The position numbers and the translations under genes were made by a program. From positions 1-49,283 of the IMG/VR virus record IMGVR_UViG_3300007276_000077: a DNA stretch of 49,283 bases; one strand, written 5' to 3'. Shown in pieces: positions 2,965-29,515 of this stretch. Each line of letters starts with the position of its first letter. Positions within the stretch are counted from its first letter, which is position 1. Source of the stretch: a virus. The notes beneath the pieces are model-generated. The model did no database searches. It saw only the letters and a list, made by a program, of their open reading frames with translations, and was not told the DNA's origin.

Positions 2965-3588
2965 ATGCATAAGACCATCGATCGGCCACTGGCAGATATC
3001 TACATGCACGTCAGTTCAGGCAAGAAATACTATCCCTTCGCGCCAATGGCGCGGGAGATCGATATCGAGGTGATCGCGCATCATCTTGCAACCCGTGCGC
3101 GCTGGAATGGTGCCACACAACACCGAACACGCTCTGACCTCATCTTCTACTCCGTGGCTGAGCATTCAGTCTATGTGTCGCGGTATGTCGAAGAGGTGCT
3201 GGAGCGCCCTGATCTGGCTTTGATGGCGCTGCTCCATGATGCCTCAGAAGCCTACAATGGCGATCTGATCCGGCCTTTGAAATACTCCGAAGCGTTCGCG
3301 GCACCATTCAAGGCGGTCGAGGATCTGAACGAGCAAGAGATTGCCTTCGCGTTCGACCTGCCTTGGCCTTGTGCTCCAGAGGTGAAGCTGGCTGACGAGG
3401 CCGTCTGTAATGCCGAATATCAGTCAATCATCCCGCGTGATCCTGATCTGGATTGGTCCGCAGGCATGTTGCACGAAACCACAAACACTGCGCCATATGT
3501 GATTGAAATGATGTTGCCCGCTCAGGCGCGCGACTACTTCATGGGTCACTATTGGAGCATCATGAACCGCGTGGAGCCAGCAGCATGA
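2965..3588 (+). CDS. HD-domain phosphohydrolase (YfbR-like 5'-deoxynucleotidase)
   Basis: 207 residues with the metal-binding HD pattern: RWNG (46-49), His67 in VAEHSVYVS, His91-Asp92 in LLHDASEAYNGD and a later Asp in LADEAVC. This matches YfbR-like enzymes that release phosphate from deoxynucleoside 5'-monophosphates. SD-like AGGAGC lies upstream, and the P2 cassette is 20 bases before the start. It fits the nucleotide-metabolism block. The substrate is inferred from the family. Confidence 0.85.
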   Translation: MHKTIDRPLADIYMHVSSGKKYYPFAPMAREIDIEVIAHHLATRARWNGATQHRTRSDLIFYSVAEHSVYVSRYVEEVLERPDLALMALLHDASEAYNGDLIRPLKYSEAFAAPFKAVEDLNEQEIAFAFDLPWPCAPEVKLADEAVCNAEYQSIIPRDPDLDWSAGMLHETTNTAPYVIEMMLPAQARDYFMGHYWSIMNRVEPAA

Positions 3589-13886: not shown

Positions 13887-14078
13887 AGTGACGCTTATAT
13901 CGAGGCTCAGCACACAAAGCACACCAAACGATAGACCTCGGTAACAGAGACGAGAACGTATGACCGAAAGAAGCATACATGCTTCGGACAAGAGAACCTC
14001 GGTATGAGAGGCGTGTAGATGCGTAGGAGCGCTTAGGAACGAGAGGAAGCCTGTGTGTAGGATAGATCGTTTATACCA

Positions 14079-14216
14079 AGAAAGCTGGTGTGCGAGATAT
14101 GTGTCGAATGGTAAGAAAGCGCTAAGGAAGTTCTAAGGAAGCTGGTGTATGAGATAGGTCTGTTAATGCTAAGGAAGCTGGTGTGTAGGATATGTGTTAA
14201 ATGCCGAGGAAGCTGG
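14079..14216. repeat. Imperfect direct repeats of about 36 bp
   Basis: GGAAGCTGGTGT or a close variant starts units at about 14079, 14136, 14172 and 14207 (spacing 57, 36, 35). Two 11-base partial units fill the first gap. A truncated variant may precede at 14041. Confidence 0.6.
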
Positions 14217-14834: not shown

Positions 14835-15467
14835 ATGACAAAGAAAAATATCAAGACCTTCGCAAAGCTGGTCGCAGCCGTCACCGCAGAGCAGATGCAG
14901 GCACATGCCGCAAGCGTCGCAAATGAGTTTGACGACCGGATGACCTTCGAGAACGTGGCACGCCCGGGCAACATGAGCATCCAGGTCAAGCTGGTAAAGT
15001 CTAAGGCACGGCTCACATCCTTGGGGATGTGCGCGAACATGATCGCCGCAGACATGAATGTGAATTTCGTGAACCGCTCTTTGAACGAGGGTAAGCGCTT
15101 TAACGTTTACGCCTTTGACAAGCTGATCGACGTTCTGACCGGTGTCGGCACATCCGGCTTGATGAGGAATGCCATCAATGTGGCGATCCTGCGGTCCATG
15201 ATTGCCTGCGAGACTGCAACTGTGCCGTTCACCGGCGAACTTGCAGCGGCCTCGGTGTCGGACAAGATCAAGCTAAAGGCAGAGTTTGCAAAGCTGCTGA
15301 CCCGGCACACCGTGAGCGCTGCAACTGCCCCGACGCAGACGAGCAGCACCATGAACGCCTTGATGGTCGCAGGTATTGTGATCAACACCGGCCTGGCACG
15401 TATGCCGGTCTATCAAATGACCCAGACGCCAGCGGCGCTCAGGATCCGCGAGGTGCTTGCGGCATAG
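14835..15467 (+). CDS. Helical protein of unknown function, possible paralogue of 17816 product
   Basis: 210 residues, mostly helical, Ala-rich, no membrane segment. The order and spacing of K.R..SL.M.A, ...VYAFDKLIDVL and FTGELAAASV recall the minus-strand protein at 17816-18364 (KKRASALAMLA, LYLTEKVLKCADAL, FASDLLKAAI), and the C-terminal TQTSSTMNALMVAGI and EVLAA recall the 6081 protein. A start at 14821 is out of frame; AGGACAG is the ribosome site. A terminator follows. Function unknown. Confidence 0.65.
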   Translation: MTKKNIKTFAKLVAAVTAEQMQAHAASVANEFDDRMTFENVARPGNMSIQVKLVKSKARLTSLGMCANMIAADMNVNFVNRSLNEGKRFNVYAFDKLIDVLTGVGTSGLMRNAINVAILRSMIACETATVPFTGELAAASVSDKIKLKAEFAKLLTRHTVSAATAPTQTSSTMNALMVAGIVINTGLARMPVYQMTQTPAALRIREVLAA

Positions 15468-15491
15468 AATTGTTGCGCGGTTAACGAGTAT

Positions 15492-15522
15492 GAGGGGCGT
15501 CAGAAATGGCGCCTCTCTTTTT
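15492..15522 (+). terminator. Rho-independent terminator
   Basis: GAGGGGCG ... CGCCTC stem with a one-base bulge, then CTTTTT. Ends the 14835 gene. The following 240 bases hold two CCCATGGG sites and the leader of the 15760 gene. Confidence 0.75.
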
Positions 15523-15588
15523 GGCAGGGTGTGAGGGGTAGGAATGGCTTAGGGTCAAGGGACTTGTCGATGGTCAGGCGCTTGGGTT

Positions 15589-15636
15589 CCCATGGGCAGC
15601 CATACACAGCCGCGGTCAGACATGCGTTCCCATGGG
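15589..15636. repeat. CCCATGGG pair
   Basis: Two GTTCCCATGGG sites at 15587-15596 and 15627-15636, 40 bases apart, mirroring the inverted pair at 14556-14607 on the other side of the 14835 gene. Confidence 0.6.
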
Positions 15637-15704
15637 TAGGCACGGGTCAGGGGAGCCACCGATCAGATGCCAGCATCATCCTTTTGAGTGCCATCAATGC
15701 GCAT

Positions 15705-15759
15705 GCGAATGTGAGTTATCAGAAACGCGCAAAAGCGCAGATAGCGAAAAGAGAACAAA
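15705..15759 (+). promoter_or_regulatory. Shared leader of the 15760 gene
   Basis: The 24-base segment 15705-15728 recurs with one mismatch, inverted, at 16879-16902. It is followed by GCGC-AAAA-GCGC and GAAAAGAGA, elements also found before the 16251 and 17816 genes. Confidence 0.55.
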
Positions 15760-16131
15760 ATGTCGGATCATGAATTAGAGATCGCACTGCTGAAAAATGA
15801 AATCACCGAGATCGATACAATCATCGGCATAGGCGACTACACCAACACAGCCGTTGAGGGGCTCCGGGGCGTATGTAAGGATATCCAACGCCGGATTGAC
15901 CTGTTGGAAGCTCCGGATGAATATCGCTCGATCAAAGTTTCCTTCATGAAGGAATACTTCGAGCGTGACGGGAAGAAGGTCGAACGCATGATCGTGTGGC
16001 ATCGTGATCATGACACAGGGGCTGATTACGTCGCGGACATTCTTGAGAGCGAGAAAGGCAACACCGAGTGGTTCGCTAAGCATATGCGCAATGAGGTGCG
16101 TTCGCTCTATGCAAAGAAAGTGAGGCGCTAA
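15760..16131 (+). CDS. Hypothetical protein
   Basis: 123 residues. The N-terminal half is probably coiled coil (LEIALLKNEITEIDTIIGIG), the second half basic and alpha/beta (VSFMKEYFERDGKKVERMIV). GAAAAGAGA is the ribosome site and belongs to a leader shared with two minus-strand genes. Function unknown. Confidence 0.65.
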   Translation: MSDHELEIALLKNEITEIDTIIGIGDYTNTAVEGLRGVCKDIQRRIDLLEAPDEYRSIKVSFMKEYFERDGKKVERMIVWHRDHDTGADYVADILESEKGNTEWFAKHMRNEVRSLYAKKVRR

Positions 16132-16250
16132 AGGAAAGGTCAGGCCGGGGCTCAGGCTCCGGCACACGCCCGTCGGCAAGTCCCTGCCCCTCCCCTGCCC
16201 CGCTATTTCAGGCACGAGAGTAGGCGCCGTAGCGCTTACTCAGGTCTTTC

Positions 16251-16631
16251 TTAGTTCAGTGTTGCAAGGTGCTTTGCACGGCGCGCATTACGCGCTTCGT
16301 TCATCAGCAAGGTCTGTGCGGCGCGCTCACGATTGAGACGCACGGCGCGTGCGCGCATGATGTTCAAGGCGCGTGTCTCATTGTGCAACTCGTCAATCCG
16401 GACTGCGACGTATGTCGAAACCGCCGATTGCTGCTCGTCAGTGAATTGACCGAGCAGTTCGCCCATGCGGCCTTCGACGACAGCTTGTGCAATACGGGCG
16501 CGCTCTTGAATTGTCTGCGCATGCTCCGGATCGACGCTGATGCTGATGCGGCCGAGGTCTGCCCAATACATATCAAGGTTGACGAGTGCGTCGAGGGCTG
16601 GGCGTGCGGTGTTAAGGTTCAGGTGAGTCAT
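16251..16631 (-). CDS. Hypothetical helical, Arg-rich protein
   Basis: 126 residues, almost all helix, with Arg/Glu-rich C-terminal half (MRARAVRLNRERAAQTLL). GAAAAGAGA leader as in 15760 and 17816. A spacer-operator promoter lies at 16681-16709. A plus-strand frame over the same bases has no ribosome site. Function unknown; nucleic-acid binding is possible from charge. Confidence 0.65.
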   Translation of the reverse strand: MTHLNLNTARPALDALVNLDMYWADLGRISISVDPEHAQTIQERARIAQAVVEGRMGELLGQFTDEQQSAVSTYVAVRIDELHNETRALNIMRARAVRLNRERAAQTLLMNEARNARRAKHLATLN

Positions 16632-16664
16632 GTCGTTCTCTTTTCAAGTTTGGCGCTTTGCGCT
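16632..16664 (-). promoter_or_regulatory. Shared leader of the 16251 gene
   Basis: Read on the minus strand: GCGCAAAGCGCC, then AACTTGAAAAGAGA before the ATG. Nearly the same as the leader at 18365-18400. Confidence 0.55.
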
Positions 16665-16680
16665 CTGTTTCGATATATTA

Positions 16681-16709
16681 ACTATATGCTGACTTACTAA
16701 TCAGCGCAA
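16681..16709 (-). promoter_or_regulatory. Promoter with operator in the spacer
   Basis: Minus strand: TTGCGC (16709-16704), 17-base spacer holding TTAGTAAGTCAG, then TATAGT (16686-16681). The operator arm AGTAAGTCAG matches the phage-wide family. Confidence 0.6.
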
Positions 16710-16859
16710 AAGGTGAGTGACGGCTTTTGCGACATCATCGGCGCTATCAACGCCGACAAGGATCACAAGAAAGGCTGCGGCGAGCAGGGCGAAGAGGCTC
16801 ACGTCGAGCAGGAAGTTGCGGATGCGACCGGCGTTCGGGTTGTAGGATGATTTTTTCAT
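16701..16859 (-). CDS. Small single-pass membrane protein
   Basis: 52 codons on the minus strand: basic N-terminus MKKSSYNPNAGRIRNFLL, one transmembrane helix (SLFALLAAAFLVILVGV), short acidic then amphipathic end (DSADDVAKAVTHLLR). Predicted N-in, C-out. It could be a holin or other envelope protein, but only one transmembrane helix is seen. The leader contains the 24-base repeat at 16879-16902. It lies on the same strand as a longer overlapping frame (16747-17052) that I judge spurious. Confidence 0.6.
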   Translation of the reverse strand: MKKSSYNPNAGRIRNFLLDVSLFALLAAAFLVILVGVDSADDVAKAVTHLLR

Positions 16860-16878
16860 AACTTGGACTTTCGCGTTT

Positions 16879-16902
16879 GCGTTTCTGATAACTCACAATC
16901 GC
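16879..16902 (-). repeat. 24-bp leader repeat, inverted copy
   Basis: Reverse complement matches 15705-15728 with one mismatch. It sits about 20 bases before the ATG of the membrane protein, as the other copy precedes the 15760 gene. Confidence 0.6.
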
Positions 16903-16941
16903 ACGTCTCGATGAGGCAGTCGCATGGCGAACGCTGGCGTA

Positions 16942-17024
16942 TTTAGGAACGGATTGTTCAAGGGACCGACGGGAAAGGATATGGATAGGTAAACAGGGGT
17001 TTAGGAACGGATTGTTCAAGGGAC
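16942..17024. repeat. Perfect 25-bp direct repeat
   Basis: TTTAGGAACGGATTGTTCAA followed by GGGAC occurs at 16942-16966 and 17000-17024, 58 bases apart, in a gene-free stretch. Confidence 0.8.
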
Positions 17025-17026
17025 GC

Positions 17027-17052
17027 GTGGAAAGACCTTGGGGTCTTTCCAC
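17027..17052. repeat. Hairpin
   Basis: Perfect 11-bp arms GTGGAAAGACC / GGTCTTTCCAC with loop TTGG. No T run on either side; possible bidirectional barrier or Rho-type end for the minus-strand operon from 17457. Confidence 0.55.
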
Positions 17053-17090
17053 TTATACTGCCCTCCCCTGCCCCACAGGGGTTTGCATGT

Positions 17091-17138
17091 GGCTAAATAG
17101 CCATGTGGCTGGATAACCACACGGCTAGATGGCTCAAT
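17091..17138. repeat. Octad array O2
   Basis: Six 8-bp units in register (GGCTAAAT first); every second unit is closer to the consensus, giving an apparent 16-bp period. It ends inside the 3' end of the 17134 gene. Confidence 0.7.
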
Positions 17139-17457
17139 AGGTCTTAAGGACGATCCTCACATCGCGCTCCAGCTCAGCCAGCATAGCCTGGGCTTCCATG
17201 ATGGCATCCGCATCTTCCGGCGTTTTAAGCAGCCGGACACGGAGATCTTGGTTTAGCTGGTCGGTCAGGTGCCGGATCTCGGTGATATACGTGGAAATCA
17301 TATTCACGGTTGCCTGCTCGGCTGGCGTATATACAGGGCCAGGCGGCCGCGTATAAGATCTGGCGCGCTCCAGCTTCCGGCGTATGCGCTCCAGTGGCGT
17401 TAATGCCAGGATCTTGGCGCGCCGTTCAGCCTGGCGCTGGCTATCGGTTTTCGGCAT
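17134..17457 (-). CDS. Hypothetical basic helical protein
   Basis: 107 residues: basic N-terminal half (MPKTDSQRQAERRAKILAL), a Pro-rich link (YTRPPGPVYTPAE) and a helical C-terminal half (EIRHLTDQLNQDLRVRLL). Overlaps the gene upstream by 17 bases, so probably coupled. No family recognised. Confidence 0.6.
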   Translation of the reverse strand: MPKTDSQRQAERRAKILALTPLERIRRKLERARSYTRPPGPVYTPAEQATVNMISTYITEIRHLTDQLNQDLRVRLLKTPEDADAIMEAQAMLAELERDVRIVLKTY

Positions 17458-17740
17458 AGGTAACTTCCTTGGTTGTTAGGCTGATATATTCGGCCTCGGT
17501 GATGCAATCAAAATCGGCGTCTGTTGAGTGGCTCAAGGTTGCCGCATAGTAGAGGCAAGATCTCCGGTCCTCGAATTTGTTGAAACGATCGGCGGTTATC
17601 ACTTGGCCTGCCAGCACGACCACGGCAATGAGGCTCAAGGCTTCGGACTTCTGGAAAGGGCGGACATAGAATGGATCTCCATTTGGGGGTTTAGACACGG
17701 GTGCGTATTGTTCGCCTGCGGGACGCCCCGGCTGTGGCAT
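17441..17740 (-). CDS. Hypothetical membrane-anchored protein
   Basis: 99 residues from the ATG at 17740 (MPQPGRPAGEQYAPVSKPPN...). A cytoplasmic Pro-rich start is followed by one hydrophobic helix (ALSLIAVVVLAGQVITA, about 35-51) and a soluble C-terminus with two cysteines (DRRSCLYYAATL, DFDCITEAEY). A TTG start at 17791 would add 17 residues but lies in a hairpin. The layout resembles an i-spanin or other envelope protein; unproven. Confidence 0.55.
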   Translation of the reverse strand: MPQPGRPAGEQYAPVSKPPNGDPFYVRPFQKSEALSLIAVVVLAGQVITADRFNKFEDRRSCLYYAATLSHSTDADFDCITEAEYISLTTKEVTYAENR

Positions 17741-17780
17741 TTTTGTCACTGTGTCTCTTTTGAGACACTCGCATAAAGCT

Positions 17781-17807
17781 GTGACGCGCAATTATCTTGC
17801 GCGTCAC
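17781..17807 (-). terminator. Hairpin after the 17816 gene
   Basis: Perfect 11-bp arms GTGACGCGCAA / TTGCGCGTCAC with loop TTATC, 9 bases past the stop of the minus-strand gene. U run is weak on the minus strand (CTTTAT). A second hairpin GTGTCTC-TTTT-GAGACAC follows at 17751-17768. Confidence 0.55.
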
Positions 17808-17815
17808 TTTGTTGC

Positions 17816-18364
17816 TTATATCTGCGCAGTCGCAAGCTTTTGTTGCGCAGTCACAAGCGCGTGACTGTCAGCGTTTGTCTTGACTTGCGTTTTATTGACA
17901 CGTCCAACAATGTTCATAACTTCGCACATTTTGACGTTCAGTTGTTCTTGACGTGTTGCGCTGATCAGTGACGCGCGACGATAACAGAAAGCGCTGTCAG
18001 CTTCACTCACTTTAAAGTTGTTCGAGATTGCGGCTTTCAACAAGTCACTTGCGAACAATTCGCGTTCAGCGTTTAGCAGCACAGTCTTGAGCGCGCAGAA
18101 CGTGTTTTCGTTAAAATCTGCGCTTGTGATCGTGTCTTGTGACAGCGCGTCAGCGCATTTCAAAACTTTTTCTGTCAGATAAAGATCTGACACAATGTCA
18201 ACTGATACGTTGCAAGCTTCTAAGAATGTCGCAACGCGTTCAGTGCGAGCGAGCATTGCAAGCGCGCTTGCACGCTTCTTATTCGTGTCTGACAGCTTGC
18301 GCGCTTCTACGTTCAAAGCGTCAGCGAAAGCGTTTGCAGCGAGAGTGTTGATTGTCTTAGTCAT
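17816..18364 (-). CDS. Helical protein without Pro or Trp, in GG/CC-free DNA
   Basis: 182 residues, predicted all helix; it contains no proline, no tryptophan and one glycine, as expected if GGN, CCN and TGG codons are avoided. Regions KKRASALAMLA, LYLTEKVLKCADAL and FASDLLKAAI recall the 14835 protein, which does use Gly and Pro. GAAAAGAGA leader before ATG 18364. Coding is supported by the leader and an open frame of normal length. Function unknown. Confidence 0.7.
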   Translation of the reverse strand: MTKTINTLAANAFADALNVEARKLSDTNKKRASALAMLARTERVATFLEACNVSVDIVSDLYLTEKVLKCADALSQDTITSADFNENTFCALKTVLLNAERELFASDLLKAAISNNFKVSEADSAFCYRRASLISATRQEQLNVKMCEVMNIVGRVNKTQVKTNADSHALVTAQQKLATAQI

Positions 18365-18400
18365 AATAGTCTCTTTTCAAGTTGTGCGCTTGTGCGCTTG
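18365..18400 (-). promoter_or_regulatory. Shared leader of the 17816 gene
   Basis: Minus strand: GCGCACAAGCGCACAACTTG, then AAAAGAGA before the ATG, like the leaders at 15725 and 16632. Further upstream, AATCACTACTGACTGAT (18462-18478) resembles the phage operator. Confidence 0.5.
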
Positions 18401-18796
18401 TTTGTCAGCGTGTCTTTGCTGATGTCTGTTTCTCGCATTTGTCGTGACGTATAGCAATCACTAAATCACTACTGACTGATCACGAAATGTTACAGATATG
18501 CGTCACGCTATTGAGCGCTTCTAAGCGCTTCTAAGCGCTTGCGTGACGTTGCGCTGTGCTAGTCTATCAATTCACGTCATCGCGCTTAGACACGCGTTGC
18601 AGCGCGTCTAACGATGCATTCCACTGCGCTGATATGCTGCGCGCGATTGATGCACGAAGTCTTAGAGATAAAACGCGATGTTGATGGGGATGCCCTCCTC
18701 CGCGCCAAGCGTTTTAAAACATATCCACCGCAGAGAGATATCCCGGTTTCATGTCCACCGCCCTGCCCTGCCCTGCCACCCGATCACCCGTCACCC

Positions 18797-18828
18797 AGCT
18801 ACCCAGCCAAATAGCTATATGCGTGGAT
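18797..18828. repeat. Octad array O3
   Basis: Four units in 8-bp register (AGCTACCC first, AGCTATAT third), just upstream of the operator of the 18900 operon. Confidence 0.65.
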
Positions 18829-18834
18829 GATGAT

Positions 18835-18851
18835 AAGTAAGCGTTGACTTT
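18835..18851 (+). promoter_or_regulatory. Operator of the 18900 operon
   Basis: AAGTAAGCGTTGACTTT, a near match to the family, preceded by GATGATAAG as a possible -10. No clear -35; the octads occupy its place. Confidence 0.6.
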
Positions 18852-18899
18852 GCCTTGCGTGGATGGGAAAAGTGGCACAACGCTTTAAGGAGCCTCTGA

Positions 18900-19226
18900 G
18901 TGACCAAAATTACAGTGCCATCTGATAACCCGATCAAGGGTTACACGAAACCTACACCCGAACAGGTCGCATTGGTCAACGAGAACAAGGTGCTGGAAGA
19001 ACTCTGCCTCCGCCAGATCGATCGCATCAGCCTTACGAACTCCGTTCGTAACCCTGCTGTTGATCCACGTTGGTTAGCATTGGCACGCACCGGCATCCAG
19101 CAATCATTCATGGATCTGAACCGCGCTGTGTTTCAGTCGCAACGTATCGAGGGCGACCTCGACGCTCTACCGTTGATCGCGTTTCTGGCATCAGATCCAG
19201 ATGTGGAGACCAAAAATGGGCGTTGA
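18900..19226 (+). CDS. Acb2/Tad1-like hairpin-domain protein (candidate cyclic-nucleotide sponge)
   Basis: 108 residues, GTG start after AAGGAGCC. The core DPRWLALARTGIQQSFM then DLNRAVF (55-78) is two helices with the pattern of the Acb2/Tad1 hairpin domain of phage proteins that bind immune signal nucleotides. In Acb2 this blocks CBASS, and in Tad1 it blocks Thoeris. The protein is close to the usual small size. It is followed by RyR and Ntn-hydrolase genes in one operon. The family call rests on motif memory, not a search. Confidence 0.65.
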   Translation: MTKITVPSDNPIKGYTKPTPEQVALVNENKVLEELCLRQIDRISLTNSVRNPAVDPRWLALARTGIQQSFMDLNRAVFQSQRIEGDLDALPLIAFLASDPDVETKNGR

Positions 19227-19560
19227 TGTCGATAAGATCGCAGAGACTTGCCACGAAATTAACCGCGTTTACTGCGAAGGTATTGGCGATATGAGCCAGC
19301 CTAAATGGAAAGATGCACCGGAATGGCAGCGCGAGAGCGCACGCAAAGGTGTGCTGTTTCGCATGACCAACCGCAACGCCGGCCCTTCCAACTCTCACGA
19401 GAACTGGCTCAAGGACAAGATTGCCGATGGTTGGGTTTGGGGCGAAGTGAAAGATCCTGAACTCAAGACGCATCCGTGCATCCGGCCTTATCGGCAGCTG
19501 CCTAAAGAGCAACAGGTTAAGGATGATCTGTTCTGCACCCTCGTAAAGTTGCTGGCATGA
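19216..19560 (+). CDS. RyR-domain protein
   Basis: 114 residues, almost entirely one RyR domain: IAETCHEINRVYCEGIGD, SQPKWKDAPEWQ, NSHENWLKDKIADGW, KTHPCIRPYRQLP and KDDLFCTLV. The name comes from ryanodine receptors; bacterial and phage copies have been proposed to sense nucleotide ligands. The start overlaps the previous gene by 11 bases and its stop overlaps the next start (ATGA). Likely function together with the hairpin protein in handling host signals; inference. Confidence 0.85.
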   Translation: MGVDVDKIAETCHEINRVYCEGIGDMSQPKWKDAPEWQRESARKGVLFRMTNRNAGPSNSHENWLKDKIADGWVWGEVKDPELKTHPCIRPYRQLPKEQQVKDDLFCTLVKLLA

Positions 19561-20087
19561 CCACGATTGCTTACAAAGACGGCCTGCTGGTCTCTGATAG
19601 TCGCGCCTACTCCGGCAGCTCTTTACCGATCGGCAACAAGCGTAAGATGATTATTCTGGATGATGGCAGTGCGGTTGCTGTCTCTACGACGCAGCCTGGT
19701 TTGGCCGAGAAGATCATGCGCTGGTATGACGATGTGCTGCACTGTGAAGAGGATGAAGAGGTCCAGATTCCGCAAGTCGAGGGCAATAACTTCTACATGC
19801 TGCTGATTGATGCGGATGACGGCGTATTCTTTAGCAACGACAGTATGGATCTCTCTGGGCCGTTGACTGCGGATTACTTCGCGATCGGCTCTGGCTCGGA
19901 TTATGCAATGGGCGCGATGGCGATGGGTGCAAATGCGATCGAGGCTGTAGCGGCTTCGATCAAGCATGATGTTTATTCCGGCTGGCCTTTGCTGGTGATC
20001 AACCGAAACGAGAATACCGAGATGTGGCTGAGTGAGGCGGATTATCATGCCGCGCACGCAGAGCCTGCTCTTATCGAGACTCCGTAG
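19557..20087 (+). CDS. HslV/proteasome-like Ntn-hydrolase
   Basis: 176 residues. MTTIAYKDGLLVSDSRA at the N-terminus places Thr2 as the likely nucleophile after Met removal, as in HslV and proteasome beta subunits. FAIGSGSDYAMGAMAMGANA (about 115-134) is the conserved glycine-rich segment of the family, followed by AIEAVAASIKHD. No AAA unfoldase is seen nearby, so it may work alone, use a host ATPase, or be a non-proteolytic relative. Last gene before the terminator 20111. Confidence 0.82.
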   Translation: MTTIAYKDGLLVSDSRAYSGSSLPIGNKRKMIILDDGSAVAVSTTQPGLAEKIMRWYDDVLHCEEDEEVQIPQVEGNNFYMLLIDADDGVFFSNDSMDLSGPLTADYFAIGSGSDYAMGAMAMGANAIEAVAASIKHDVYSGWPLLVINRNENTEMWLSEADYHAAHAEPALIETP

Positions 20088-20110
20088 CGCCTCCCTTGCG
20101 ATGGATAACT

Positions 20111-20149
20111 GGGTGTTGGTGAGATATCTCAACCAACACCCTTTTTTTT
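20111..20149 (+). terminator. Rho-independent terminator
   Basis: GGGTGTTGGT / ACCAACACCC 10-bp arms around the palindrome GAGATATCTC, then eight T. Ends the 18900-20087 operon. Confidence 0.93.
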
Positions 20150-20164
20150 ATGCTTTGATGAAAA

Positions 20165-20188
20165 AGCTAAATAGCTAGATAGCTGGTT
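20165..20188. repeat. Octad array O4
   Basis: Three perfect-register units (AGCTAAAT, then AGCTAGAT, then a weaker one) between the terminator and the 3' end of the RHH gene. Confidence 0.75.
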
Positions 20189-20426
20189 ACTTACCATGCT
20201 CGCGTTTGTAGGCAGCGTAACTGTCTTGCAGCAGCTCCTTCATAGAGATACCGCGCACGGCCGCCTCCATCTTGAACTCAAGGTGCCAGCTGCGTGGCAT
20301 GTTGAAGGTCATCGGCGCCAGGCGCTCACCGTTCATGTTGTCAGCCGCACCTACCGCCACATGCTCCGGCAGAAAGCTTTTCTTCTTAGGTGGTGGCACA
20401 TTTGCCCGGGTTGGTTTGTCTGTCAT
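20187..20426 (-). CDS. Ribbon-helix-helix DNA-binding protein (partition partner / regulator)
   Basis: 79 residues. A flexible basic N-terminus (MTDKPTRANVPPPKKKSF) precedes a ribbon-helix-helix domain: strand APMTFNMP, helix RSWHLEFKMEAAVRG and helix SMKELLQDSYAAYKRE. Start overlaps the parA stop (ATGA). In ParA loci with RHH partners, such as TP228 ParG and the pSM19035 omega protein, this protein binds the centromere and represses the operon. The octad arrays are its most likely sites; inference. Confidence 0.82.
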   Translation of the reverse strand: MTDKPTRANVPPPKKKSFLPEHVAVGAADNMNGERLAPMTFNMPRSWHLEFKMEAAVRGISMKELLQDSYAAYKREHGK

Positions 20427-21070
20427 GCGCTTGCTCCTTCCATCTGGTTAATGCGTGCGACGATCTCCGCGGCCAGTAGATCTGCGCGTTCTTCCAGCTT
20501 GCCGACGGCCTTACCGACCTCTGATAGTGCCAGCCCGTGGTTCTGAGCGCGCTGGTAGCTCGTCTTGGCGCTGATGTCCTGCTCTGCCACATCGAAGCCG
20601 CCCAAATAGTCGCGTGCCTCTGAGACAGCCACTGCGCTCTCGGTGGTCTTGTTCAGCACAAACAGTATGCGATGCTTGGCGACGCCTTTTTCGACCAGCT
20701 CGTTGGCGAACATCAGCTGCGGCTCCAGATCATCCAGGCTCAGGCCGGTTGGCACGATGACCAGTGTTGAGATCCGCGCGATGTCAAGGCTGGTTTGGTC
20801 ACTGTCCGGCCGGCCGTCAGCCACAACCAGATCCGCGGTGTCGCGTTTCATCAGTGTGGGTGAGTTAAATGGCTGGGTAGCTATATGAGGCTTTTGCTTT
20901 ACAGCTGCGCGGATCTGGCCCCATTTGACCGAGGTCAGCTGCGTGGTGTTGAAGTCGGCGATCTTCACAGACCAACCGGCGGCCGCGTAGGTCCGTGCGA
21001 TTAGTCTGGCGATGGTGGATTTGCCGACGCCGCCTTTCTGCGAAAGACAACTGATGATCAGGTCTGCCAT
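20423..21070 (-). CDS. parA: ParA-family partition ATPase
   Basis: 215 residues. Deviant Walker A KGGVGKST (12-19) at the N-terminus, Walker B region DLVVADGRPDSDQ and VVPTGLSLDDLEPQ typical of short type Ib ParA proteins without a DNA-binding N-terminal extension. ATP-driven DNA segregation with the RHH protein in the same operon is expected. SD GAGGGAG before ATG 21070. Octads O5 lie inside the gene (HIATQPFN region) and O6 right upstream. In a phage this suggests plasmid-like maintenance; alternatives are regulatory use or subcellular DNA positioning. Confidence 0.92.
   Translation of the reverse strand: MADLIISCLSQKGGVGKSTIARLIARTYAAAGWSVKIADFNTTQLTSVKWGQIRAAVKQKPHIATQPFNSPTLMKRDTADLVVADGRPDSDQTSLDIARISTLVIVPTGLSLDDLEPQLMFANELVEKGVAKHRILFVLNKTTESAVAVSEARDYLGGFDVAEQDISAKTSYQRAQNHGLALSEVGKAVGKLEERADLLAAEIVARINQMEGASA
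20863..20886. repeat. Octad array O5 inside parA
   Basis: Three 8-bp units in register (AGTTAAAT, GGCTGGGT, then AGCTATAT), coding on the minus strand for HIATQPFN. Weakest array because it is in coding DNA. Confidence 0.45.
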
Positions 21071-23863: not shown

Positions 23864-24583
23864 ATGCAAGCCATAGATTTCAAGACCGTTCCGGCGAGTG
23901 AGCTTCGGAAAAACCCGTGGAACACAAACCGTGTATCGGCTGACCACGAGCTGAAGATCCGCAAGAGCCTTGAGCGCAACGGTATGTTCAAGCCGATTAT
24001 CGTGCGCCAGTTTCCGGGTGTCGATGGATACGAAATCCTTGGCGGCGAGCATCGCTGGGAGCAGGCTGTTGAGCTTGGCTACACAGAGGTGCCGATCGCA
24101 AACCTTGGTTTTATCGACGATCGCCGCGCGAAAGAGATCGGTGTGATCGACAACACGCGCTACGGTGCCGACGACACATTGAGTTTCGCGGATCTTCTCA
24201 AAGAAATTGGTGATCTGGACGAGCTTCAAGATTTTCTTCCCTACGGCAGCGCCGACCTCGACGCGATTTTCTCTTCTTCAGATATATCACTCGAAGAGTT
24301 GGATTTGCCTGGGAACTTGATCGAGGAAGAAGAAACCCAGCAAGAACTGCCGGCTGAAAAAGCGCAGAAGACGCACCAAGTGATGCGCTTCAAAATTCCA
24401 CTTGGCGATGCCGAGCGCCTGACCGCGCTGATCGCATCAACCAAGAACGCGCACGGATACAAGGACGAAGACGACCTCACCAACGCCGGTGACGCGCTCA
24501 TTCACCTTATCGCATCACAACTTCCGGCAGCCGGAGACGCTCTTGAGCGCCTGGAAGAAGCTCTCAAGGAGAACGAGGCATGA
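23864..24583 (+). CDS. ParB-N domain protein
   Basis: 239 residues. ParB-N/sulfiredoxin-like fold: ELRKNPWNTNRVS, KIRKSLERNGMFKPIIVR and nucleotide-binding GGEHR (60-64), then a long helical and acidic C-terminus instead of a ParB DNA-binding HTH. Such phage ParB-N proteins near terminase have been linked to DNA modification or nuclease roles. Stop overlaps the next start (ATGA). No starting ParA partner is adjacent on this strand. Confidence 0.82.
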   Translation: MQAIDFKTVPASELRKNPWNTNRVSADHELKIRKSLERNGMFKPIIVRQFPGVDGYEILGGEHRWEQAVELGYTEVPIANLGFIDDRRAKEIGVIDNTRYGADDTLSFADLLKEIGDLDELQDFLPYGSADLDAIFSSSDISLEELDLPGNLIEEEETQQELPAEKAQKTHQVMRFKIPLGDAERLTALIASTKNAHGYKDEDDLTNAGDALIHLIASQLPAAGDALERLEEALKENEA

Positions 24584-27614: not shown

Positions 27615-28220
27615 ATGACAGATACTCCGGACGAAGAAGAAGAAAAGTCCACTCACAAGCTCAGCGATGACGATTGGAAAGAGGCATCCCGGCTTTATGA
27701 AGTCGAGGATCAAAACCTTGTAGACATCGCGGACAAGTTCGGCGTGTCACGGCAGGCGTTGTCGAAGCGGTTCAAAGCTTCCGGCGTTGTGCGTGGCGCA
27801 AAGAAACCTGCTGTTGGCCCCGTTACGGCTCCAGAGCCCGACCGTTTCTCGAACAAACGCGAGGAGTGGATCGAAGAAACGCGGATGGAAGGCTACAACA
27901 GCCTTCGGCAAGCTTCCATGCTGGCGCGTAAAATTGTCATCGATGCGATGAAGGCTAAAATAAAGATCGACGCCGTGGAAGATCAGATCCGGGCGGCCCA
28001 GCGGTATAGCCGCTTGCTTCAGGACAACCTGGCGGCACGGCTGACACTGCTTGATGCGGCCGGATACGTTGGCGGCGAAGATCTGCCGATGCTTCAGATC
28101 GAAGACTTGACCGACGAAGAGATCCTTCAGCACCACAAGAACACCGGCGTCTACGACGAGAGCGTCACGGTTGAGGATATGCTGCAAGAAGAGATCGAAC
28201 TGGGGAACCTTGACGAATGA
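27615..28220 (+). CDS. terS: Terminase small subunit
   Basis: 201 residues from ATG 27615; the frame is open further left but without a better start. Acidic beginning (DTPDEEEEKSTHKL), a helix-turn-helix (VDIADKFGVSRQALSKRFK), then helical core (QASMLARKIVIDAMKAKIK) and acidic end. TerS binds the packaging site and activates the large subunit. Stop overlaps the terL start (ATGA). The element at 27536-27588 may be part of the packaging site. Confidence 0.8.
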   Translation: MTDTPDEEEEKSTHKLSDDDWKEASRLYEVEDQNLVDIADKFGVSRQALSKRFKASGVVRGAKKPAVGPVTAPEPDRFSNKREEWIEETRMEGYNSLRQASMLARKIVIDAMKAKIKIDAVEDQIRAAQRYSRLLQDNLAARLTLLDAAGYVGGEDLPMLQIEDLTDEEILQHHKNTGVYDESVTVEDMLQEEIELGNLDE

Positions 28221-29515
28221 GTGTCATGGTTGCCCCACCGCCGACCAAGCGCATCATCAGATCGCTCAAGGTCCACAAATACCAGAAGGTCGTTATGCGA
28301 TCCAAGGCGCGTTTTCGCGTCGTTGTGGCTGGTCGTCGATGGGGCAAGACGCAAGTTTCAAAGATCTCGCTGGTCATCCAGGCTGCCGCGAAACGCAATC
28401 AGCTCGTTTGGTATGTCGCTCCGACGTATCAGATGGCACGCGACATTATGTGGGACGATCTGACGGCGTCCATTCCAGATAAGTGGATCCGGACGATCTA
28501 CGAAAACCGCATGGTCATCTATTTGATCAACGGCTCCAAGATCCACCTCAAAGGCGCCGACAAGCCAGACTCGCTCCGCGGTGTCGGTCTGAACTTCGTC
28601 GTCATCGATGAGGCGCAGGACATCAAAGAAGAAACTTGGGAGATGGTTCTTCAGCCAACCCTGGCAACTACCAACGGTCAAGCGATCTTCATCGGCACAC
28701 CAAAGTCATACAACTGGCTCTATCATCGCTACATGCTGGGCAAACGCGGTGTGATGGTTGAAGACGCACGCGGCAAGATGGTCAAGAACGAATGGGAGAG
28801 CTGGCAGTTCCCGACGATCACCTCACCGTTCATTCCGGCCCGAGAAATCGTTGCACGTCGGCGCGATATGGATCCGAAGTCGTTCCGACAGGAGTTCGAG
28901 GCCAGCTTCGAGGTTATGTCCGGACGGGTTTACTACGCTTTTGACCGCACTTTGCATGTTGGCAAATACCCGTTCAACCCAAAGCTACCGATCTACATCG
29001 GTATGGACTTTAACATCGACCCGATGTCCGCAATTGTCTGCCAGGAGCAGGCAAACGGTGAAATCTGGGTCGTGGATGAGTGCGTGCTTTACGGATCGAA
29101 CGTCCAGGAGATCGCGGACGAACTGGTGCGGCGCTATTACCGCTACATCAACCAGATCTCGCTTTATCCTGACCCTGCCGGCAACAACCGAAATCAGGGC
29201 AGGGGTGAGACATCGCTGGATATCCTGCGCGAAGCCGGTTTCAAATCGATCTACTTCAAGCGCAAGCACCCAGCCGTGCAAGACCGTGTCAACGCGGTCA
29301 ACCGTCTGTTTCAGACAGCAGAAGGCACCGTGCGTTTGCGGATCAACGATACGTGTCGCCGGTTTATCGATAGCGCCGAGCAAACCATCTACAAGGAGAA
29401 CTCAAGCGAGGTCGATAAGAGCCAGGGCAAAGAGCATGAAATGGACGCTTTTGGCTATTTGGCAGACTTCCGCCACCCGATGCGCAAGATGACAATTTTG
29501 GGTGTATCGGTTTGA
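28217..29515 (+). CDS. terL: Terminase large subunit
   Basis: 432 residues: packaging ATPase with Walker A GRRWGKTQ (39-46), Walker B FVVIDEAQD (127-135), motif III-like FIGTPKSYN, then an RNase H-like nuclease with GMDFNIDP (262-269), DPAGNN and a late Asp in MDAFGYLADF. It pumps DNA into proheads and cuts concatemers. Length fits typical TerL. Confidence 0.97.
   Translation: MSVMVAPPPTKRIIRSLKVHKYQKVVMRSKARFRVVVAGRRWGKTQVSKISLVIQAAAKRNQLVWYVAPTYQMARDIMWDDLTASIPDKWIRTIYENRMVIYLINGSKIHLKGADKPDSLRGVGLNFVVIDEAQDIKEETWEMVLQPTLATTNGQAIFIGTPKSYNWLYHRYMLGKRGVMVEDARGKMVKNEWESWQFPTITSPFIPAREIVARRRDMDPKSFRQEFEASFEVMSGRVYYAFDRTLHVGKYPFNPKLPIYIGMDFNIDPMSAIVCQEQANGEIWVVDECVLYGSNVQEIADELVRRYYRYINQISLYPDPAGNNRNQGRGETSLDILREAGFKSIYFKRKHPAVQDRVNAVNRLFQTAEGTVRLRINDTCRRFIDSAEQTIYKENSSEVDKSQGKEHEMDAFGYLADFRHPMRKMTILGVSV

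What the first reader, a model, noticed from the sequence alone, without database searches (positions are those of the whole stretch)
17738..18685. A 948-bp stretch almost free of GG and CC
By direct reading I count one GG and two CC, although G and C are plentiful as GCGC, CG, TGAC and GTCA. At this GC level dozens of each would be expected. The depletion crosses coding and non-coding DNA and both strands, so it acts at DNA level: the protein in it has no Pro, no Trp and one Gly as a consequence. Edges are sharp (TGG at 17735-17737, GGGG at 18686). Possible causes are escape from a defence that reads GG/CC (for example an NGG PAM), transfer from an element with that bias, or a functional sequence constraint. 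I know of no described element like it.
Basis: seen in the sequence. Interest (0 to 1): 0.93.

Follow-up and report, generated by a model that had tools for sequence, protein, structure and literature searches.

The report
GG/CC-purged zone in T5-like phages
A roughly 1,000-base stretch of this bacterial virus contains almost no GG or CC, related viruses keep the same purged zone at the same place, each lineage with its own forbidden 3-4-letter words, so something reads these short words and must find none here; what reads them is not yet known.

Summary
It is not a composition quirk or an artefact. The same zone lies at the same place (about 10-16 kb upstream of the large terminase) in isolated T5-like phages (RHph_X66, V1VFA-S, N1_10, nickie) and in many IMG/VR contigs, once per genome. 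Its right edge is a conserved 43-nt site, GAAGTCYTAGA-N25-GCCTTCC. Lineages forbid different words on both strands: every GGN (window group, nickie); all but GGT; HGGA and HGGC only; GGC and GGG only. Allowed GG words occur at normal frequency. Paralogues of the zone gene elsewhere in the same genomes use GG normally, so the constraint belongs to the place, not the protein. One relative avoids CC on only one strand. NGG-PAM escape, imported bias and CC deamination are disfavoured. Best explanation: a zone purged of the recognition word of a phage enzyme, most likely its DnaG-type primase, beside an origin or genome terminus. The zone is well supported; the primase is inference (about 0.35). 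I found no described element like it.

The parts
17738..18685 (.). GG/CC-purged zone
   Evidence: 1 GG + 2 CC against ~105 expected; syntenic zones in relatives
17816..18364 (-). Zone gene, 182 aa, predicted helical N-terminal domain plus C-terminal winged helix; likely DNA-binding
   Evidence: ORF; profile of zone-gene relatives finds it and a paralogue; AlphaFold model pLDDT 82.9, relative L131 pLDDT 92.0; only weak Foldseek hits, several of them to ArsR-type winged-helix repressors
18365..18655 (.). Purged non-coding upstream region of the zone gene; its first part shares the leader TCTCTTTTCAAGTT with 16631-16658
   Evidence: repeat D5; GG/CC count
18656..18698 (+). 43-nt composite site GAAGTCTTAGA-N25-GCCCTCC that marks the right edge of the zone; orientation toward the terminase
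   Evidence: single copy per record in the 28 records searched, fixed spacing in nearly all lineages
18686..18830 (+). CC-rich flank to the right of the site; in relatives it carries direct repeats such as CCTTATACAGCC (three CCCCTTACACAACCA in nickie)
   Evidence: aligned flanks by eye; CC 49 per 500 nt on average right of the site against 5 just left
14835..15467 (+). Paralogue of the zone gene, outside the zone, with ordinary GG/CC use (73 against 101 expected)
   Evidence: profile hit E = 1.2e-43; counts
16942..17024 (+). GG-containing 25-nt exact direct repeat (TTTAGGAACGGATTGTTCAAGGGAC, twice) left of the zone
   Evidence: repeat D7
28217..29515 (+). Large terminase subunit, the syntenic landmark used to find relatives
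   Evidence: PHROG phrog_2 E = 1.5e-53; tblastn and viral contigs relatives

Best explanation
The stretch is a cis-acting, recognition-word-free zone. Selection removes from about 0.7-1.6 kb, on both strands and through coding and non-coding DNA, a 3-4-nt word read by an enzyme the phage itself uses. In this phage the word is any GGN/NCC; in relatives it is HGGA+HGGC, all GGN except GGT, or GGC+GGG. The zone ends sharply at a 43-nt site found once per genome, with CC-rich direct repeats beyond it and, in most lineages, a gene for a winged-helix protein inside it. Most likely reader (inferred): the phage's DnaG-type primase, whose class of enzyme recognises trinucleotides that differ between related phages. 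The zone would be a primer-free interval beside an origin or the genome terminus, so that no Okazaki primer is laid there and one strand stays single-stranded, or is copied continuously, for about one Okazaki-fragment length. SHOWN: the zone, its conservation, its uniqueness per genome, the lineage-specific words, the conserved site, independence from the protein, one clear case of strand asymmetry.
For: Same zone at the same locus in isolates and contigs: X66 7 vs 120 expected, V1VFA-S 1 vs 146, N1_10 5 vs 155, nickie 3 vs 138. Exact lineage-specific words: G005 has HGGT 26/27 but 0 of ~78 for all other GG words; G009 HGGT 23/20, the rest 0; G014, G015, L153, L145, L106 have 0 HGGM with normal HGGT; G010 has GGA 32/35 and GGT 22/35 but GGC and GGG 0 of ~89. 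Zone unique in seven complete genomes (one stray nickie window) and sharp at the site. The word is at normal frequency elsewhere in the genome, which fits an enzyme that needs the word elsewhere better than a nuclease. The G013 zone avoids KCCD on the terminase-sense strand (1 vs 17) but not HGGM (16 vs 19.5). DnaG-type primase (PF08275) in 25 of 26 records, the exception being the 49-kb window fragment; the zone phages share a distinctive zinc-binding domain that T5 lacks. Primases read trinucleotides and related phages differ: T7 GTC, SP6 GCA; plant Twinkle reads a GGA-containing word (PMC10557236). CTG, the E. coli DnaG word (from memory), is not depleted (203/215). No C5-methyltransferase found.
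Against: No direct evidence links the primase to the word; T5 also carries a DnaG_N hit yet has no zone. T7, whose primase word GTC is known, has no GTC-free zone, so phages do not generally need one. GC skew has its minimum at the zone in nickie but not in other genomes, so an origin is unproven. A PWM of the site does not find the T5 genome end, so identity with a terminus is unproven. A constraint on both strands in most lineages is more than a strictly lagging-strand model requires. ANB28 shows only a weaker HGGA-poor zone that is not adjacent to its GAAGTCTTAGA.
Confidence: 0.35

Rival explanations
1. Exposed-end model. The zone is the first DNA to enter the cell (T5-like first-step transfer). 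It is free of the words cut by a short-motif nuclease, of the host or of the phage's own host-takeover set; the rest enters later, when protected.
For: A related phage (Nickievirus Nican01) has long direct terminal repeats by PhageTerm (PMC11256456). In T5 relatives the first-injected DNA is the vulnerable part: Cas9 works only in the first 4.5 kb (PMC8108384) and a T5-like phage lacks EcoRI sites in its pre-early region (PMC13250531). Two of 28 contigs begin 34 and 58 nt left of the site, as if an end lay there.
Against: The N1_10 A1 homologue lies about 40 kb from the zone. No C5-methyltransferase is present to protect the rest from a GG/CC cutter, and the rest shows no avoidance. Hosts differ while rules are shared. 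Strand asymmetry in G013 is hard to explain for a double-strand cutter.
Confidence: 0.27
2. Binding-exclusion model. A phage DNA-binding protein (possibly the winged-helix family itself) coats or silences DNA through GGN/NCC words; the zone escapes it so that its promoter and gene stay active, and specificity drifts with the protein.
For: A winged-helix gene sits in nearly every zone; the right flank is rich in CC repeats that could be its high-affinity sites.
Against: In ANB28 the HGGA-poor zone holds other small genes. Many zones also hold a second, unrelated-looking gene. A double-strand binder does not readily give one-strand avoidance.
Confidence: 0.2
3. Escape from host CRISPR (NGG or CC PAM) or host restriction.
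For: GG/CC is read by Cas9 (NGG) and type I-F (CC PAM, from memory); the strict lineages cannot exclude it.
Against: Most relatives keep GGT and often GGG at normal frequency, which are full NGG PAMs; the locus and site are conserved across different hosts; the rest of the genome is not purged.
Confidence: 0.04
4. Local mutational bias, for example cytosine deamination at CC, rather than selection.
For: GC falls in the zone (47% in the zone against 53% for the window); a deaminase would have a short context with lineage drift.
Against: The products TC and CT are not enriched (GA/TC 540 vs 604, AG/CT 556 vs 525 expected) while GC and CG are (810 vs 490, 664 vs 468). Reading frames and GC-rich content are retained.
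Confidence: 0.05

Closest known systems
T5 first-step-transfer (pre-early) DNA and injection-stop region
   Same: T5-like terminase synteny; a special region upstream of the terminase; first-injected DNA of T5 relatives is the vulnerable part and one relative lacks EcoRI sites there (PMC13250531)
   Different: T5 has no GG/CC- or other trinucleotide-free zone; a PWM of the site does not hit the T5 end; the T5 region is about 10 kb and carries A1/A2/dmp
Iteron-type origins with the initiator gene alongside (phage lambda O, plasmid Rep), from memory
   Same: winged-helix gene next to a single conserved site followed by direct repeats
   Different: no known origin of this kind is purged of GG/CC; no skew support in most genomes; no sequence match to Rep or O families
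Primase recognition words (T7 GTC, SP6 GCA, plant Twinkle GGA-containing word)
   Same: 3-4-nt word, differing between relatives, read on single strands
   Different: I know of no phage with a primase-word-free zone; T7 has none
Chlorella virus nickase/methylase CviPII, word CCD (from memory)
   Same: KCCD in many lineages resembles CCD
   Different: no C5-methyltransferase found in 22 records; no nickase homologue searched
GpC-rich, GG/CC-poor ultraconserved elements of vertebrates (PMC9690913)
   Same: same dinucleotide direction
   Different: by its title a statistical excess and depletion in vertebrate non-coding elements, not a purge in coding phage DNA; only title and abstract start seen

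Membership tests
T5-like phage lineage (host of the zone) | T5-type large terminase and neighbouring synteny | tested here: met
   terminase relatives 53-77% to RHph_X66, nickie, ANB28 and E. coli T5-likes such as Cyrano; shared HslV/ParA/helicase/ParB order with X66
T5 first-step-transfer DNA | carries A1, A2 and dmp genes | tested here: not met
   N1_10 'A1 protein' at 50.2 kb, zone at 9.5-10.7 kb; the window dNMP phosphatase at 2965-3588 lies far from the zone
T5 first-step-transfer DNA | lies at the physical end of the genome within long terminal repeats | not testable with these tools
   long DTR reported for Nican01 without coordinates; PWM link to the T5 end failed
Escape from NGG PAM | all NGG/CCN removed irrespective of the next base | tested here: not met
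   HGGT and GGG kept at normal frequency in most relatives; met only in the strict lineages
Bidirectional replication origin | cumulative GC-skew minimum at the zone | tested here: inconclusive
   met in nickie, not in N1_10, G012, G014, G015, G024
Primase-word-free zone | phage encodes a DnaG-type primase | tested here: met
   25 of 26 records; absent only from the 49-kb window fragment
   needs biochemistry
Self-protected nuclease/methylase system (CviPII type) | C5-methyltransferase protecting the rest of the genome | tested here: not met
   PF00145 absent from 22 records while the control rang in 10 of 14 genomes; other methylase types not searched

The most novel reading that the evidence does not exclude
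Probability: 0.33. Interest if true: 0.94.

Novelty: categorically new. Interest (0 to 1): 0.88.

Why it matters
A strict word-level purge of a kilobase, kept through coding DNA in diverse phages and with lineage-specific words, means that some molecule reads 3-4-nt words there and that each occurrence costs fitness.

Tried and rejected
NGG-PAM escape. CC deamination (TC/CT not enriched). Protein-level explanation (recoding null; paralogues with normal GG, including G008 with two copies: GG 74/78 outside the zone, 9/40 inside). An mRNA-level explanation: asymmetry follows the physical strand rather than the gene (G013 gene on minus, weak-lineage genes mostly on plus). GCGC nick-site enrichment as in T5 (6 to 29 GCGC per zone, not consistent). 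Identity of the site with the T5 terminus: a by-eye 7/10 similarity failed an unbiased PWM scan. GC-skew origin test: inconclusive. Trinucleotide-free zones in T5 and T7: none. Protein searches of named phages with two zone proteins: no match; bacterial genomes: no relative. Rfam on 15000-20500: only two chance-level matches below the gathering score. PDB sequence and fold searches: nothing significant. Papers: no description of such a zone found.

Full report
WHAT IS THERE. The window is an IMG/VR virus record of 49,283 bases with a T5-like terminase. In 17738-18685 there are one GG and two CC where about 105 are expected (P = 3e-41; 5e-31 after allowing for the window's own mild GG/CC shortage). 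The purge runs through the minus-strand gene 17816-18364 and the non-coding DNA on both sides. With the same protein and the window's codon usage, 41.6 +/- 5.3 GG/CC would be expected in the gene; 2 are seen.

IT IS CONSERVED. I collected terminase relatives and scanned them. RHph_X66 (7 vs 120 expected), V1VFA-S (1 vs 146), N1_10 (5 vs 155) and nickie (3 vs 138), all isolates in GenBank, have the same zone at the equivalent place upstream of the terminase, as do many contigs. An assembly artefact is therefore excluded. In seven complete genomes it is the only such zone, apart from one stray 500-nt window in nickie.

A CONSERVED SITE AT THE EDGE. Every strong zone ends on its terminase-proximal side at GAAGTCYTAGA, followed in most lineages 25 nt later by GCCTTCC or a close variant (window 18656-18698; AAAGTCTTAGA in nickie). 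In the 28 records searched it occurs once each. Beyond it lies CC-rich DNA with, in many lineages, direct repeats like CCTTATACAGCC (read by eye). Averaged over about 25 loci, KCCD falls from about 20 per 500 nt just right of the site to 0.7 just left of it. A PWM of the site does not find the end of the T5 genome, so I do not claim it is a terminus.

LINEAGE-SPECIFIC WORDS. In many relatives GG is only partly depleted, but splitting GG by its neighbours shows sharp rules. Pooled over twelve such loci, AGGA 0/58, AGGC 0/51, CGGA 2/33, CGGC 1/50, TGGA 3/59, TGGC 1/65, whereas AGGT 40/48, CGGT 65/48, GGGN about 1.0. By lineage: strict (all GGN) in the window group, X66, V1VFA-S, N1_10, G012, nickie, G004; only HGGT left in G005 and G009; HGGA+HGGC gone but GGT kept in G006, G014, G015, L119, L145, L153, L106; GGC+GGG gone but GGA and GGT kept in G010. 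ANB28 has a region low in HGGA only (2 vs about 34), found post hoc and not adjacent to its site. L139, G007 and G013 are relaxed. Limits of some zones (G038-G050) were set from the depleted windows themselves, so totals there are optimistic; the zero classes in the others do not depend on this.

STRAND. G013 avoids KCCD on the terminase-sense strand (1 vs 17) but not HGGM (16 vs 19.5). In the pooled weak lineages ACCD is 130/176 and CCC 36/161, against HGGT 178/152 and GGG 78/178. The sign is the same for opposite gene directions (the G013 gene is on the minus strand, weak-lineage genes are mostly on plus), so the effect follows the physical strand. This is one clear case plus a weak trend, not proof.

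PLACE, NOT PROTEIN. The zone gene belongs to a family of winged-helix proteins (AlphaFold pLDDT 92.0 for L131 and 82.9 for the window protein), with PHROG matches of unknown function and no significant structural relative. The window (14835-15467), X66, V1VFA-S and G008 carry paralogues outside the zone with ordinary GG use; the N1_10 gene in the equivalent position also uses GG normally. In G008 one copy has 74 GG/CC (78 expected), the zone copy 9 (40 expected).

MECHANISM. What is shown is selection against a short, lineage-specific word in one defined zone, while the same word is normal in the rest of the genome. A nuclease or restriction reader would also threaten the rest of the genome, and no C5-methyltransferase was found. 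An enzyme that needs the word elsewhere but must not act here fits better. Zone phages encode a DnaG-type primase (25/26 records) with a shared zinc-binding domain unlike that of T5. Primases read trinucleotides and differ between related phages (PMC10557236), and CTG, the E. coli DnaG word from memory, is not depleted. Zone length, about 0.7-1.6 kb, is about one Okazaki fragment (from memory). I therefore favour a primer-free zone at about 0.35. The main rival is the exposed-end model (0.27), supported by what is known of first-injected DNA in T5 relatives and by a long DTR in a Nickievirus. A binding-exclusion model gets 0.2.

NOVELTY. Two literature searches found no description of such a zone; the library is open-access only.

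Noticed in passing
window 17738-18685 and other zones: GATC is also depleted in zones (24 vs 90 expected in the weak group, 24 vs 68 in the strict group), separate from GG/CC; unexplained.
   Followed up: no
window 15704-15762, 16626-16658, 16879-16903, 18359-18391: Shared leader-like sequences upstream of several genes: TCTCTTTTCAAG at two starts and inverted at a third, and TGCGAATGTGAGTTATCAGAAACGC / its 96% complement; perhaps a common regulatory leader.
   Followed up: no
window 13935-14216: Degenerate repeats (CTAAGGAAGCTGGTGTGTAGGATATGT-like) in apparently non-coding DNA (D1-D3).
   Followed up: no
L101:1001-2500 (Stenotrophomonas phage ANB28): HGGA-poor region (2 vs ~34) with normal HGGC/HGGT/HGGG, holding four small genes: a possible zone with a different word and different genes.
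   Followed up: partly
L101:2577-2819: Dense GTTCAGC/CTGAACG repeats next to a 200-aa gene whose C-terminus resembles the zone-gene winged helix by eye.
   Followed up: no
G020 and G021 contig starts: Two contigs begin 58 and 34 nt left of the 43-nt site; possibly a physical end or an assembly break there.
   Followed up: no
window 20423-21070, 23864-24583: ParA- and ParB-like genes in a lytic-looking T5-like phage.
   Followed up: no
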